In this document: positions 28,205 through 39,476 of the stretch, one piece after another | How positions within the stretch are numbered: position 1 is the stretch's first letter | Layout of the letters: each line of letters opens with the position of its first letter | Source: a virus | Length of the DNA: 39,497 nucleotides | Reading direction: 5' to 3' (one strand) | IMG/VR virus record: IMGVR_UViG_3300048927_000334 | Coordinates: 1-39,497 of that record | Translations under genes and position numbers: made by a program | The notes under the pieces: generated by a model | Seen by the model: only the letters and a program-made list of their open reading frames with translations | Database searches by the model: none | Told to the model about the DNA's origin: nothing

Positions 28205-28304
28205 CGGTTACTCTGCTTTTCTAGGTTAACCATCAATAGTGCTTCCTGGTTGAAAAAACCGACGCACCAATGCATCGTTCCTGTCAGTCAAACAGGAGCG
28301 GAAA

Positions 28305-28508
28305 ATGAAACTGTTGAAATTTACCAGAACGTCCCCGCAGGGCGCTGAAGTGGCGATCAACCCGGAGTTTGTCGTTTCCGTCACTAAGCATAACGACAAA
28401 ACGGCTATTCATCTTGCTGCCCCGGGCGGTGATAGTAACCTAACTTATCATGTGGCCGAAGACTTTAGTTTCGTCGTTTCCCGTCTGCAAGGAATAGCAA
28501 CTAGCTGA
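28305..28508 (+). CDS. Small unknown protein (67 aa)
   Basis: ATG 28305 follows AGGAGCGGAAA, an excellent site. The protein starts MKLLKFTRTSPQGAEVAINP and is a compact beta-rich domain with no membrane segment. It is transcribed away from the terminase genes into the accessory pocket, so it probably is expressed from its own promoter and belongs to the moron region. Confidence 0.55.
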   Translation: MKLLKFTRTSPQGAEVAINPEFVVSVTKHNDKTAIHLAAPGGDSNLTYHVAEDFSFVVSRLQGIATS

Positions 28509-28552
28509 CCTTGCGTTCCTGAATACTGGCGTAGACAACCTTGGCGGATGGG

Positions 28553-28792
28553 ATGGGTGACGAGAAGCGATTTTATGTGAAAGTGTTCCCACCTCACTGT
28601 AGGGCTCGCATTCACAAGTCAGAATGCAAACACTGCCGAAACGGCCAGGGCCAAGAGAACCAAGACAAGGGTACTGGCCCGACTTACTGGGAAGGCTTTA
28701 CGACCTACTCGTCGGCGGCATCGTTCATGGGGTCGCTCGGGCCAAGATTCAAAGACGTGGGCGCTTGCCAATACTGCAAACCCACGGGCTAA
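28553..28792 (+). CDS. Small zinc-ribbon-like protein (79 aa)
   Basis: ATG 28553 (MGDEKRFYVKVF) is preceded by GGCGGATGG; an upstream TTG at 28541 is also possible. It shows a metal-binding pattern with two Cys/His clusters: CRARIHKSECKHC near the start and CQYC near the end, with TYWEGFTTYSSAASFMGS between. This fits a small Zn-ribbon protein found scattered in Rhizobiales genomes and phages. Nothing shows its target. It ends about 150 bases before the 3' end of the convergent KAP gene. Confidence 0.55.
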   Translation: MGDEKRFYVKVFPPHCRARIHKSECKHCRNGQGQENQDKGTGPTYWEGFTTYSSAASFMGSLGPRFKDVGACQYCKPTG

Positions 28793-28887
28793 CGCCCTAC
28801 AGCTCTTGCTCGGTGGTGGTCATGCGGCATCACCGAGATAGTTGTTAACACCCCACTTACGCCGGCTGGCAAATCCCAGAAATTAGA

Positions 28888-28920
28888 AAGGCAGCTTTCG
28901 CCGCCTAACTCAATTTTTTT
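28888..28920 (+). terminator. Weak terminator-like hairpin after the zinc-ribbon gene
   Basis: The stem AGGCAGC/GCCGCCT (one mismatch) with a TTTC loop is followed after about eight bases by seven T. It lies between the convergent zinc-ribbon and KAP genes. The distance from stem to T-run makes it a weak call. Confidence 0.35.
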
Positions 28921-28945
28921 GAATATGTCACTGCAACGGTTACAC

Positions 28946-30361
28946 CTATCGATCGCTCGTAAGTCTACCAGCATTTACCACCAAAGGAAGTATCTGCGCC
29001 TGTATAGACGGTTGCACGTCGTCAACATAAACTCCGTTCCATTCAGGCCTGAATATCCCAGAGACATAATCTTCTACGATGCCTTCTGATCCATTTGCGT
29101 TCATGGAGTAGCTTAGTGCGCCGAGTTTCGATTTTGCTTGGGCGTAAATCGACATCATGTAGAATGATCGATCTATTTCGGAGCCATCGCGATCACGACG
29201 ATACCTCTTCATTACCCAATTGCGCTTATTGCGAAAATCTCCGTCATCCGGCCATTGTGCTTTGCCGGTTAGATAAAAATTCGCGCATACAGGAAACAAC
29301 AATGAAATATCCATAGGTATCTTGTGTGGCCAGGATACCGCAGTGTTTTCGATTACCTCCATCACTTGAAAAATAGCCCTTAAATCGAAATCCATGGCCC
29401 GACATCCGGTCCAGATTGCCTCATCTAATTTATCCTGAGGAGCCCGTATTTTCCCAGCGGGAAGGCCCTCACATAGAGCGCTAACAAGTTCTTCTATCGA
29501 AGGTTCCTCAAAAACGTATGTTCGATCAAAGAACCTTTTAAGATAGCTGAAACCATCGAAGCCTGCACCATAGGCCCCCGCTATAGAATGTTTGAGTTGG
29601 TCCGAATTTGTTGCGAAGACGAAAATCACACCATCAACATCGAATAGATGCTTAACGCGCTCCAGCAATTGCACTGCATAGCTTGGACGGCACCTATCAA
29701 GTTCATCCACGAGAATGAAGATTGGCTTTTTTGCCTCTCCACCCAAAGCCTTCACGACTTGAGAAAGTCTTTTACGAAAATCAGATGTGGCCTTCTCGGT
29801 AGTCTGGAAGCCTTCAATCATTGCCTCGAGCGTACCGTCGAATAGCTTCTCGAACTGCCCAGCAATAGCCTGTCCACCTTCTTCTAAAACCGTATGGGCA
29901 ATGTCGCCAGAAGCAATCTCACCCAACTCGTCGAGCGATACACCTGTGTGCTTCTTTATGAGGCCCTTAGTAACCGCGCCTGCAACTCTAAGTGCGATCG
30001 CACCGCCGCTGGATTTCGCTTTCTGCCATGAAGACTGTAGCGTAGATTGCTCTTTTAGGTGAGGCGCAAACGCGCCATCAATCGCAGCCATAATAGCCAC
30101 GTAGGGGTCCTGAGCATGGTCGTCCTTCCATGCATTTATGCGGACCACAATATGTTTACGCTGAACCGCGTCTTCAGCGAAACCATCAAGAAAAAAGCTC
30201 TTTCCACCTCCCCAAACAGAGTCCACATTCAACACGTATGAACCGGGTCTGTCCTGCTCCCGTCTTTTCGCTACTTGGCCAACCAAAAAATTATACAAAA
30301 ACTCAGCGTCTTGCTTGCGGCCTAGCTTGTCTTTTTTCCAATAATTCACTTTATGATTCAT
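28946..30361 (-). CDS. KAP-family P-loop NTPase (471 aa)
   Basis: The ATG follows AAAGGAGCAAGGAACA. The KAP hallmarks are present in order: Walker A DSVWGGGKSFF at about 47-57, the motif RINAWKDDHAQDPYVAI at about 74-90, and Walker B FILVDELDRCRP at about 215-226, followed by FVFATNS (sensor-like). KAP NTPases are STAND-related proteins, several involved in phage exclusion (PifA of F is the classic). The long region between the Walker motifs contains only a weakly hydrophobic stretch (GGAIALRVAGAVTKGLIKK), so this member may lack its own membrane helices. It is the main candidate for a defence or exclusion moron in this prophage. Its composition is more A/T-rich than the late genes. Confidence 0.88.
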   Translation of the reverse strand: MNHKVNYWKKDKLGRKQDAEFLYNFLVGQVAKRREQDRPGSYVLNVDSVWGGGKSFFLDGFAEDAVQRKHIVVRINAWKDDHAQDPYVAIMAAIDGAFAPHLKEQSTLQSSWQKAKSSGGAIALRVAGAVTKGLIKKHTGVSLDELGEIASGDIAHTVLEEGGQAIAGQFEKLFDGTLEAMIEGFQTTEKATSDFRKRLSQVVKALGGEAKKPIFILVDELDRCRPSYAVQLLERVKHLFDVDGVIFVFATNSDQLKHSIAGAYGAGFDGFSYLKRFFDRTYVFEEPSIEELVSALCEGLPAGKIRAPQDKLDEAIWTGCRAMDFDLRAIFQVMEVIENTAVSWPHKIPMDISLLFPVCANFYLTGKAQWPDDGDFRNKRNWVMKRYRRDRDGSEIDRSFYMMSIYAQAKSKLGALSYSMNANGSEGIVEDYVSGIFRPEWNGVYVDDVQPSIQAQILPLVVNAGRLTSDR

Positions 30362-30391
30362 TGTTCCTTGCTCCTTTACAGGAGAAGTGAA

Positions 30392-30420
30392 ATCAAAAAA
30401 TCATGCATAACGCGAGTCAA
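30392..30420 (-). promoter_or_regulatory. Candidate sigma-70 promoter of the KAP gene
   Basis: On the minus strand TTGACT (30420-30415) and TTTGAT (30397-30392) are separated by 17 bases, about 30 bases before the KAP ATG. Its -35 box lies inside the inverted repeat 30414-30431, so a repressor there would block it. Confidence 0.45.
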
Positions 30421-30431
30421 TTAATCGACTC
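30414..30431. promoter_or_regulatory. Inverted repeat (candidate operator) between KAP and TM/coiled-coil genes
   Basis: GAGTC-AATTAATC-GACTC is an 18-bp near-palindrome. A second hairpin, GCGTGC/GCACGC (30434-30448), follows on the plus strand and is followed by a T-run. Both lie in the shared intergenic region of the divergent genes and could control both. Confidence 0.45.
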
Positions 30432-30539
30432 ATGCGTGCATCGCACGCCGCGCGGTTTTTTGATGTTGCTCGTTTTGTTGGCGCTAGGACCGGACCTTGC
30501 TTTCTAATTAGAGACGCGATTGATTACCTTGTGCGTTCT

Positions 30540-31010
30540 ATGGAGCTTTTAGAGTTGAATATTCCATCCTGGGAATTTTGGAATAATCCAACCACTTGGG
30601 GAGCGGTGGTTGCTATAATATTTACCGCAGTCGGAGGCTTTCTAGCCTCTTGGAACGGCGCGCAACAGAATGCTGATATCGCTTTAGAAAGATTTCGGCG
30701 AGAAAATGCTGATGCGGCGCTTCTAGCAATTCAAAACGGGCAAACTCGTATATCAGCCCAAGGCGACCAAGCTGCTCAGACACATCAAGAAATTCTTGAG
30801 AGACTCAGGCGAAGCACTGTTTCGGAACTACTAGAGGTATATCGGTTAACTACTAACGCGCCCCTACCTGCAGGCTACGGTAAAGATTGGTGGCCCATCG
30901 AATGGATAAACTCTCAACTGGCAGATAAAGAAGAACGTTTTTTTGTGGCAAAAAATAAAGAGGGTAGACTGGAATACATAACGGGTAAGCCACGCGTCCC
31001 AATGCAATGA
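30540..31010 (+). CDS. Single-pass membrane protein with coiled coil, divergent from KAP (156 aa)
   Basis: One transmembrane helix (WGAVVAIIFTAVGGFLASW, about 19-37) is followed by a charged helical region (ADIALERFRRENADAALLAI, about 45-105) that looks like a coiled coil, and then a compact C-terminal domain with several Trp and Glu. ATG 30540 is chosen because the long frame from 30432 begins in a hairpin region; 30432 remains possible. It shares the intergenic region with the KAP gene. A membrane partner for a KAP protein lacking TM helices is an attractive hypothesis. Confidence 0.6.
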   Translation: MELLELNIPSWEFWNNPTTWGAVVAIIFTAVGGFLASWNGAQQNADIALERFRRENADAALLAIQNGQTRISAQGDQAAQTHQEILERLRRSTVSELLEVYRLTTNAPLPAGYGKDWWPIEWINSQLADKEERFFVAKNKEGRLEYITGKPRVPMQ

Positions 31011-31110
31011 GCGGTTCGGAGCTTCCCCGCCGACTTCGCGATTCACGCTTACCATCGATTTGCTCTTTACCTCAATATTAACTTCTCTGTGGACCCCGGT
31101 CTTTCATCCG

Positions 31111-37713: not shown

Positions 37714-37845
37714 ATGGAGAAAGAAAATCCTTTGATTGAGTTCGTGAAGGCATTGGCAAGGTGGCAGGCGAAGGCTGACGCTGAAGCCTTGCGACCGTCC
37801 AATGACGACGCGAAACCCGCCACACCCGCCAAGAGATCGAAATGA
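37714..37845 (+). CDS. Small protein coupled to the integrase (43 aa)
   Basis: ATG 37714 follows GGGGAGAACTGATCG. The product begins MEKENPLIEFVKALARWQAK and ends in a Pro/Lys-rich tail (KPATPAKRSK). Its TGA overlaps the integrase ATG (ATGA), so it probably sets integrase translation. It might be an excisionase-like partner, since small basic proteins beside serine integrases can act as directionality factors, but nothing in the sequence proves it. Confidence 0.55.
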   Translation: MEKENPLIEFVKALARWQAKADAEALRPSNDDAKPATPAKRSK

Positions 37846-39443
37846 GACGCGCAGCTATCTACGCCCGGTATTCGACCGACCTGCAAAACGACAAGTCCGT
37901 CGAGGATCAAATAAGGCTCTGCGAAGCCCACGCGCAGCGCATCGGCGCGCAGATCGTCAAGACGTTTCACGACAGAGCGAAATCAGGCGCGTCCATGTTT
38001 GGGCGCGCTGGCCTGTCTCAACTGATGCAGGACGCAGAAAACGGAACCTTCGATGTTCTGATATCGGAGTCTCCCGACCGTGTTTCCCGCGACATTGCCG
38101 ACCTGGCGCACATTCATAAGACGCTCAAGTTTCGCGGCGTCGAAATGAACTGCGTGAACGGCGGCGTCATGGATACGATGCAGATCGGCATGTATGGCGT
38201 CGTGGGGCAGATGCAGCGTGAGGAAGGTGCCAAGAAGGTCAAGCGCGGCATGGTGGGCGTTGTTCGCTCAGGCCGTCACGCTGGCGGCAGGGCATACGGC
38301 TATGAGCCGGTACCGGGCAAACCGGGAGAGCTTCGCATTCTTCCAGACGAAGCGCAGATCATCGTTCGAATTTTCAAGCAATATTCGGCCGGGACATCGC
38401 CGCGAACCATTGCCGGCGCATTGAACGAAGAAGGCATTACCCCTCCCCGCGGCGATAAATGGAACGCATCGACAATAAACGGCAGCGGGACGCGCGGATA
38501 TGGCATCCTGCGCAATCCCATTTATGACGGCCGGATGATTTGGAACCGGGTGCGTATGGTGAAAGACCCGAGCACCGGGCGCCGTGTTTCGCGCGCGAAC
38601 GACGCGAGCGAACACGAGACGATCGACGTTCCGCATCTGCGCATCGTGGATGAATGGTTATTCCAGAAGGTGCAGGAGAGAAAGGCCGCCACCGGTGGCG
38701 AACACAAGATGATGCAGCCCAGATCGAAGCGGCTGCTTTCGGGCCTGCTGCGCTGTGGAGCGTGCGGCGGGGGAATGGTGATAGTCGGCCCGGATCGGGG
38801 CGGCAATCGCATCCAGTGCAGCACCTACCGGGAATCCGGAACGTGTGATAACCGCCGACGGTTTTATATCGACCGGATCGAAGAACAGGTTATCGACAGC
38901 TTACGCATGGCATTTGCCGATACGAGCGTCATCGAGGCCTACGTGAAGACATATGAGGAGGAGTTGAAGCGGCGGCGCGGAAACGCCTTCAAAAGCAGAG
39001 CGGCAGCGCAACGCGGCTTGAATGATGCCAAAGACGGCATCACGAAAATAATTGAGAAAATAGTGAAGGGCTTGATCGAGGACGACGAAGCAGCGGTTTT
39101 GCTGACGGGCCTTCGCGAGGAGCGAAGTAGGTACCAGGCAATTCTCGACACGGTCGATGAGCCGGTAAATGTGATTGAGCTTCAGCCTAAAGCGTTGCGC
39201 AGTTTCCGGGCTAGCATAGAAAGCTTGGCGAAAATCTTGCGATCGAGCGACGGTAATGTGCCGATTGAGCTTGGGGAAACGTTCCGTCAACTAGTGGCCG
39301 CGGTCGTTGTGGAGCCGACGCCAGCCGGAGAGGCTTATTCAGTCAGCCTGAAGGCTTATCTCTCAAGCCTTATGAGTTCCGACCTGTCGGTGATAAAGTT
39401 GGTAGCGGGAGAGGGACTTGAACCCCCGACACGCGGATTATGA
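37842..39443 (+). CDS. Large serine recombinase (phage integrase, 533 aa)
   Basis: The resolvase N-terminal catalytic domain has the nucleophile Ser11 in YARYSTDLQNDKS and the conserved SPDRVSRD region (about 77-84). A recombinase domain follows (about 145-285, GITPPRGDKWNASTI and GYGILRNPIYDGRM), then a zinc ribbon (Cys305, Cys308, Cys326, Cys335) and a coiled coil (about 345-440). The last 14 residues (VAGEGLEPPTRGL) are encoded by antisense of the tRNA-Met gene; the TGA stop is at 39441, inside the anticodon region. This shows the recombinase gene ends within the attachment site. It integrates and, with a helper, excises the prophage. Confidence 0.93.
   Translation: MRRAAIYARYSTDLQNDKSVEDQIRLCEAHAQRIGAQIVKTFHDRAKSGASMFGRAGLSQLMQDAENGTFDVLISESPDRVSRDIADLAHIHKTLKFRGVEMNCVNGGVMDTMQIGMYGVVGQMQREEGAKKVKRGMVGVVRSGRHAGGRAYGYEPVPGKPGELRILPDEAQIIVRIFKQYSAGTSPRTIAGALNEEGITPPRGDKWNASTINGSGTRGYGILRNPIYDGRMIWNRVRMVKDPSTGRRVSRANDASEHETIDVPHLRIVDEWLFQKVQERKAATGGEHKMMQPRSKRLLSGLLRCGACGGGMVIVGPDRGGNRIQCSTYRESGTCDNRRRFYIDRIEEQVIDSLRMAFADTSVIEAYVKTYEEELKRRRGNAFKSRAAAQRGLNDAKDGITKIIEKIVKGLIEDDEAAVLLTGLREERSRYQAILDTVDEPVNVIELQPKALRSFRASIESLAKILRSSDGNVPIELGETFRQLVAAVVVEPTPAGEAYSVSLKAYLSSLMSSDLSVIKLVAGEGLEPPTRGL
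39400..39443. other. Right attachment-site region (att) within tRNA-Met
   Basis: The integrase reading frame passes into the 3' half of the tRNA-Met gene and stops in the anticodon loop. In known prophages of this type the phage carries a copy of the tRNA 3' end so the gene stays intact after insertion, so the crossover core should lie here. No second copy is visible further left in the window. Confidence 0.6.
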
Positions 39444-39476
39444 TTCCGCTGCTCTAACCACCTGAGCTACCCCGCC
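39400..39476 (-). tRNA. tRNA-Met(CAU), probably elongator
   Basis: Reading the minus strand, the acceptor GGCGGGG pairs with TCCCGCT (G-T at both ends) and A plus encoded CCA follow (39403-39400). The D-arm is GCTCAGGTGGTTAGAGC, the anticodon stem GCGGA/TCCGC with loop ATCATAA, and the T-loop TTCAAGT. The anticodon CAT is at 39442-39440. Elongator Met is more likely than tRNA-Ile2, as the sequence resembles alphaproteobacterial elongator Met. It overlaps the integrase end in antisense. Confidence 0.95.

What the first reader, a model, noticed from the sequence alone, without database searches (positions are those of the whole stretch)
28946..31010. KAP NTPase with divergent single-TM coiled-coil protein in a prophage accessory pocket
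The KAP NTPase has all its motifs but apparently no membrane helices of its own; the divergent neighbour has exactly one helix plus a coiled coil. KAP proteins include phage-exclusion factors (PifA, established). The pocket between terminase and early genes is a typical moron site, and both genes are more A/T-rich than the phage core. A two-protein membrane exclusion system is a reasonable hypothesis.
Basis: partly seen in the sequence, partly recalled or inferred. Interest (0 to 1): 0.62.

Follow-up and report, generated by a model that had tools for sequence, protein, structure and literature searches.

The report
Prophage single-gene KAP NTPase defence candidate
A dormant virus in a bacterial genome carries a one-gene cassette for a ring-type ATPase of a kind already suspected of blocking rival viruses; the membrane protein next to it is an unrelated neighbour, but one end of the ATPase is strikingly variable between close relatives and may be its recognition surface.

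Summary
The two genes are really there. The KAP gene (28946-30361, minus strand, 471 aa) has intact NTPase motifs and no transmembrane segment. The divergent ORF (30432-31010; probable start 30540) has one. Both fill a replaceable pocket (about 28219-31102) that holds other cargo in a sister phage. The two-protein membrane system is not supported. Three KAP cassettes about 80% identical, in three different phage settings, share only the KAP gene, its promoter and its terminator; homology stops at the edge of the neighbour. The neighbour has no homologue beside 168 KAP relatives or in phage or plasmid records. Divergent single-TM neighbours are no commoner than background and unrelated to each other. 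The KAP gene strongly matches PADLOC's uncharacterised single-gene candidate PDC-S20 (E 1.3e-72). Its predicted fold (pLDDT 87) is an AAA+-like NTPase whose best solved match is RdrA, the RADAR ring. New here: a C-terminal patch (residues 366-436) differs at 55% of positions between two relatives that are 96% identical over residues 1-365; the C-terminal segment is less conserved than the NTPase core in 18 of 18 independent pairs. Most likely a stand-alone exclusion gene with a fast-changing recognition module. Defence activity is untested.

The parts
28946..30361 (-). Soluble KAP-family NTPase (PDC-S20 type), 471 aa
   Evidence: Pfam KAP_NTPase 9.9e-32; PADLOC PDC-S20 1.3e-72; PHROG 8614 6.4e-55; AF2 model pLDDT 87.1, pTM 0.82
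30362..30438 (-). Conserved promoter region of the KAP gene; 5' end of the mobile cassette
   Evidence: Nucleotide homology with L001 and L002 runs to 30431/30438 and stops there; AAGGAG ribosome site before the start codon
30414..30431 (.). Inverted repeat GAGTC-N8-GACTC (two GANTC sites), overlapping a possible -35 TTGACT
   Evidence: Arms identical in three cassettes while spacer and outer flank diverge; only GANTC pair of this spacing in the window; GANTC depleted in the window, 57 against 191 expected
28889..28906 (-). Hairpin plus T-run, probable intrinsic terminator of the KAP gene; 3' end of the cassette
   Evidence: hairpin conserved in L001 and L002
29054..29266 (-). Hypervariable C-terminal patch of the KAP protein (residues 366-436)
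   Evidence: L001/L002: 39 of 71 residues differ here against 13 of 365 before it (p 5e-25); same trend in 18 of 18 independent pairs
29732..30046 (-). Helical hairpin between the second strand and Walker B (residues 106-210), at the place where, from general knowledge, canonical KAP proteins carry TM helices; here not hydrophobic
   Evidence: AF2 helices 106-138 and 164-210; insert hydropathy 95th percentile 1.37 in 97 relatives
30432..31010 (+). Divergent single-TM orphan ORF (probable start 30540); passenger, not part of the KAP cassette
   Evidence: No homologue; outside the shared cassette
28219..31102 (.). Replaceable accessory pocket between the small terminase gene and a phrog_6836 gene
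   Evidence: L169 alignment breakpoints at 28218 and 31103; different cargo in L169

Best explanation
The KAP gene is a self-contained one-gene moron with its own promoter and terminator, encoding a soluble, probably ring-forming AAA+-like NTPase of the PDC-S20 group. Proposed mechanism: the prophage expresses it in the lysogen; the fast-changing C-terminal module senses a component of an incoming phage (protein or nucleic acid); ATP-driven assembly or remodelling through the conserved core then blocks the infection or disables the cell. Shown here: family, motifs, absence of TM, cassette limits, different insertion contexts, variability of the C-terminal patch. Inferred: oligomeric ring, sensing by the patch, exclusion activity. 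The effector step is unknown, and no effector domain was found. The neighbouring TM ORF is independent cargo of the same pocket.
For: PDC-S20 is the top PADLOC match for the window protein and matches all 97 relatives. The 81% identical KAP genes of L001 and L002 sit among tail genes, and window homology covers only gene, promoter and terminator; several other close pairs also lose homology about 100-200 bp upstream of the gene. The pocket is replaced in sister phage L169, with a weak PDC-S32 match among its cargo. Some neighbours of chromosomal relatives are defence genes (AriA, ThsB, DRT, mads). Best solved fold: RdrA heptamer of RADAR; RdrA is a heptameric AAA+ ATPase (PMC9994260) and QatA, another KAP, forms 7-8-mers and binds DNA (PMC13279940). 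C-terminal segment less conserved than core in 18 of 18 pairs (Wilcoxon p 7.6e-6), with dN up to more than tenfold higher and in several pairs a jump in dS; in L115/L116 and L118/L122 the DNA just past the gene is again 0.9 or more identical.
Against: No experiment shows that any PDC-S20 protein defends; a library search for 'PDC-S20' found no paper, and PMC12988326 calls PDCs unvalidated. The RdrA match is weak (TM-score 0.40 by query length). The PADLOC neighbour count has no matched control. Non-catalytic C-terminal regions commonly evolve faster than NTPase cores, so part of the variability may be relaxed constraint or recombination rather than arms-race selection. The PDC-S20 profile covers residues 5-338 only.
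Confidence: 0.6

Rival explanations
1. Two-protein membrane exclusion system: the KAP NTPase acts through the divergent single-TM coiled-coil protein as its membrane anchor or effector.
For: Adjacent and divergent around one promoter region of about 70 bp; both AT-rich. L002, one of the two nearest relatives, also has a divergent single-TM ORF. Single-TM upstream ORFs in either orientation are mildly above background (20 of 85 against 14%, p 0.024, not corrected for relatedness).
Against: The partner lies outside the shared cassette. It has no homologue in 168 KAP-relative loci. The L002 ORF is unrelated and L001 has a retropepsin-like ORF without TM. The divergent single-TM excess is not significant (p 0.20).
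Confidence: 0.07
2. The KAP NTPase serves the prophage itself (for example DNA or assembly chaperone, or lysogen fitness) rather than excluding other phages.
For: KAP fold is close to AAA+ remodelling enzymes such as HslU and ClpX in the structure search. No direct phenotype is known.
Against: Not shared with sister phage L169 at this site, so probably not needed for the phage cycle. Same gene in unrelated phages at different places, and relatives on plasmids and chromosomes. PDC-S20 assignment and a fast-changing C-terminal patch fit conflict better.
Confidence: 0.2
3. Counter-defence or plasmid-exclusion role: the KAP protein acts against host defences or incoming plasmids rather than phages.
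For: The comparable pocket region of related phage L170 holds an ORF with an Acb2/Tad1 hairpin, an anti-CBASS/anti-Thoeris type domain (below Pfam cut-off). KAP relatives occur on plasmids.
Against: No similarity of the KAP protein itself to known anti-defence families was found; its best matches are defence candidates.
Confidence: 0.1

Closest known systems
PDC-S20 (PADLOC single-gene phage defence candidate, KAP NTPase)
   Same: Profile match E 1.3e-72, single gene, soluble, about 470 aa; all 97 relatives match
   Different: Profile covers residues 5-338 only; C-terminal part diverges. PDC-S20 itself is a computational candidate without a known mechanism
PifA (F plasmid exclusion of T7)
   Same: KAP NTPase core, exclusion role proposed
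   Different: Only residues 34-277 match a 720-position profile, E 3.4e-12
QatA of qatABCD
   Same: KAP NTPase core; QatA forms 7-8-mers and binds DNA (PMC13279940)
   Different: E 8.7e-15 over the core only; Pfam scan of ten ORFs around the KAP gene found no QueC or TatD partner
Tmn
   Same: KAP family defence NTPase (PMC11846954)
   Different: Tmn has two TM segments in the protein; this one has none
RdrA of RADAR
   Same: Best solved-structure match, heptameric AAA+ ring (PMC9994260)
   Different: About 830 aa, about 12% identity, TM-score 0.40; acts with the RdrB deaminase, which was not seen beside the KAP gene

Membership tests
KAP NTPase (PF07693) | Significant match to the KAP P-loop domain with Walker A and B | tested here: met
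   E 9.9e-32, 110.8 bits against cut-off 20; motifs invariant
KAP NTPase (PF07693) | TM helices inserted in the NTPase domain (typical, not universal) | tested here: not met
   Insert between strand 2 and Walker B is a non-hydrophobic helical hairpin in this protein, and is not TM-hydrophobic in its relatives; this clade is soluble
PDC-S20 | PADLOC profile match as best defence family | tested here: met
   E 1.3e-72; all 97 relatives match
PDC-S20 | Single-gene system | tested here: met
   Only the KAP gene with promoter and terminator is shared between cassettes; similar in other pairs
PDC-S20 | Antiviral activity | not testable with these tools
   Needs plating assays; PDCs are described as unvalidated (PMC12988326)
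PifA | Match over the whole protein | tested here: not met
   Core only, E 3.4e-12, profile positions 33-246 of 720
Qat system | QatB, QatC (QueC) and QatD beside the KAP gene | tested here: not met
   Pfam scan of ten ORFs around the KAP gene gives no QueC or TatD hit
Tmn | Two TM segments in the KAP protein | tested here: not met
   No TM segment
Two-gene KAP plus TM partner system | Partner conserved beside KAP relatives | tested here: not met
   No homologue in 168 loci

The most novel reading that the evidence does not exclude
PDC-S20 KAP proteins are immune-receptor-like NTPases in which a conserved ATPase ring is kept while a C-terminal recognition patch is exchanged or diversified between close relatives, and prophages move such one-gene receptors around as interchangeable cassettes; in this alphaproteobacterial-type cassette the promoter carries a conserved GANTC pair that may tie expression to CcrM methylation and the cell cycle.
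Probability: 0.2. Interest if true: 0.65.

Novelty: new member of a known kind. Interest (0 to 1): 0.4.

Why it matters
PDC-S20 is a candidate defence family spread over phages, plasmids and chromosomes with no mechanism that I could find in the paper library. The window shows it as an autonomous cassette and removes the tempting but unsupported membrane partner. The comparison of close relatives points to one concrete place, residues 366-436, where specificity may reside. That makes it testable with simple patch swaps between two proteins that are 96% identical over residues 1-365.

Tried and rejected
Partner co-occurrence: viral, phage and plasmid searches, 168 loci, about 300 Rhizobiaceae genomes and 397 genomes drawn from the same order gave nothing, apart from one weak hit (E 0.0086, 28% over 99 residues in a 344-aa frame, L205), treated as chance and not examined. 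Statistics of divergent TM neighbours: no specific enrichment. First genome scan with exact motifs found nothing; a broader alignment then gave 80 loci. AF2 on three sequences failed (pLDDT 36); with 97 sequences it succeeded. Sequence search of solved structures gave only chance-level matches for KAP and partner. The promoter motif on other viral contigs looked like chance outside L001 and L002. The extended GcrA motif YGAKTCK (PMC7987155), compared by eye with the inverted repeat, fits the window copy (TGAGTCG) but not L001 or L002, so GcrA control is left as a lead. No related phage in GenBank by megablast. Genome Biology 2004 R30 (the KAP family paper) is not held, so the usual position of KAP TM helices rests on general knowledge.

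Full report
Observation. The KAP gene (28946-30361, minus, 471 aa) matches Pfam KAP_NTPase at 9.9e-32 and has no hydrophobic segment of transmembrane strength. The divergent ORF (30432-31010) has one such segment and coding-like composition in its frame. A terminator-like hairpin within its first codons, and the end of the KAP cassette falling at about 30431, make 30540 or 30555 a likelier start than 30432.

Setting. The window is a virus record in a catalogue with a repressor, an antirepressor and a large serine integrase, so a prophage-type genome. A sister phage, L169, aligns up to window 28218 and again from 31103, with unrelated DNA between. The pocket is thus a replaceable accessory site. 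L169 holds two other reverse-strand ORFs there, one with a weak match to candidate PDC-S32. The comparable region of L170 holds an ORF with a sub-threshold Acb2/Tad1 hairpin.

Cassette. Two IMG/VR prophages carry 81% identical KAP proteins, both among tail genes, not beside the terminase. Their DNA matches the window only from 28865/28882 to 30431/30438, that is terminator, gene and promoter. The neighbour ORF lies outside. In L001 the divergent neighbour is retropepsin-like without TM; in L002 it is an unrelated single-TM protein. In other close pairs of the family (L003/L102, L049/L056, L138/L148) homology likewise fades 100-200 bp upstream of the gene. The gene therefore tends to move alone.

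Partner test. In 169 loci (168 relatives plus the window), 12 have a divergent upstream ORF with one TM segment. For upstream ORFs of 80-350 aa, 7 of 32 divergent ones have one TM against a 14% background, p 0.20; pooled over orientation 20 of 85, p 0.024, uncorrected for relatedness. The divergent ones are unrelated to each other. The window's ORF has no homologue in these loci, in phage or plasmid records, or at E<=0.001 in 397 genomes drawn from the same order; its one hit among 298 Rhizobiaceae genomes was left as chance. The two-protein hypothesis is not supported.

Family. The best defence-library match is PDC-S20 (1.3e-72), far ahead of QatA (8.7e-15) and PifA (3.4e-12); all 97 aligned relatives match PDC-S20. 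PDCs come from a guilt-by-embedding screen and most await experiment (PMC12988326). Neighbours of chromosomal relatives include AriA, ThsB, DRT and mads genes, suggestive but without a control.

Structure. With 97 sequences AlphaFold2 gives pLDDT 87 and pTM 0.82: an AAA+-like core with a long helical hairpin (106-138, 164-210; the tip, about 140-170, is uncertain) between strand 2 and Walker B. From general knowledge, canonical KAP proteins carry TM helices there. The top solved match is RdrA of RADAR, E 6.8e-6, TM-score 0.40, a heptameric AAA+ ATPase (PMC9994260). QatA forms 7-8-mers and binds DNA (PMC13279940). A ring is therefore likely but not shown.

Variable patch. L001 and L002 differ at 13 of residues 1-365 but 39 of residues 366-436, with no change in length, and 3 of the last 35 (p 5e-25). 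In 18 independent pairs with core identity 75-98.5%, the C-terminal segment is always less conserved than the core (medians 0.72 against 0.91, Wilcoxon p 7.6e-6). In several pairs dS rises too (L001/L002 0.33 to 1.07; L138/L148 0.22 to 1.34), which suggests replacement by recombination. In L049/L056 dN rises tenfold with dS almost unchanged. In L115/L116 and L118/L122 the DNA is about 0.9 identical again just past the gene. Faster evolution of non-catalytic regions is common, so the general trend alone proves little. The sharp patch in L001/L002 and the return of identity in L115/L116 and L118/L122 are the stronger points. A recognition module is the natural reading.

Promoter. The 5' end of the cassette carries GAGTC-N8-GACTC, with arms identical in three cassettes while the spacer varies. 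GANTC is depleted in the window (57 against 191 expected) and this is its only pair at that spacing. At least one GANTC lies in the 110 bp upstream of 35% of 31 alphaproteobacterial KAP relatives, against 18% of other genes. CcrM/GcrA control is a lead only.

Verdict. The two-protein membrane system is not supported. Best explanation: a one-gene PDC-S20 exclusion cassette with a conserved NTPase and a variable C-terminal recognition patch (0.6). Untested step: antiviral activity.

Noticed in passing
30414-30431: Inverted repeat GAGTC-N8-GACTC (two CcrM-type GANTC sites) at the 5' edge of the KAP cassette, arms conserved in three cassettes.
   Followed up: partly
window 1-39497: GANTC occurs 57 times against 191 expected from dinucleotide shuffles, as if selected against.
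   Followed up: no
37842-39476: The 3' end of a large serine integrase gene (+) overlaps a tRNA-Met gene (39400-39476, -), possibly the attachment site; no direct repeat longer than 13 bp to the rest of the window was found.
   Followed up: partly
L170:7938-8507: Small ORF near the small terminase gene of a related phage with an Acb2/Tad1 hairpin match (E 1.2e-4, below Pfam cut-off), a possible anti-CBASS/anti-Thoeris sponge.
   Followed up: no
L169:6221-8453: Cargo of the same pocket in the sister phage: two reverse-strand ORFs, one weakly matching PDC-S32 (E 1.3e-4), the other without any Pfam or PADLOC match.
   Followed up: partly
L001:5453-5884: Divergent neighbour of the L001 KAP gene is a retropepsin-like ORF (gag-asp_proteas E 0.021, below cut-off).
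   Followed up: no
28541-28792: Orphan 83-aa ORF in the same pocket with paired cysteines (possible zinc ribbon, Pfam E 0.097 only).
   Followed up: no
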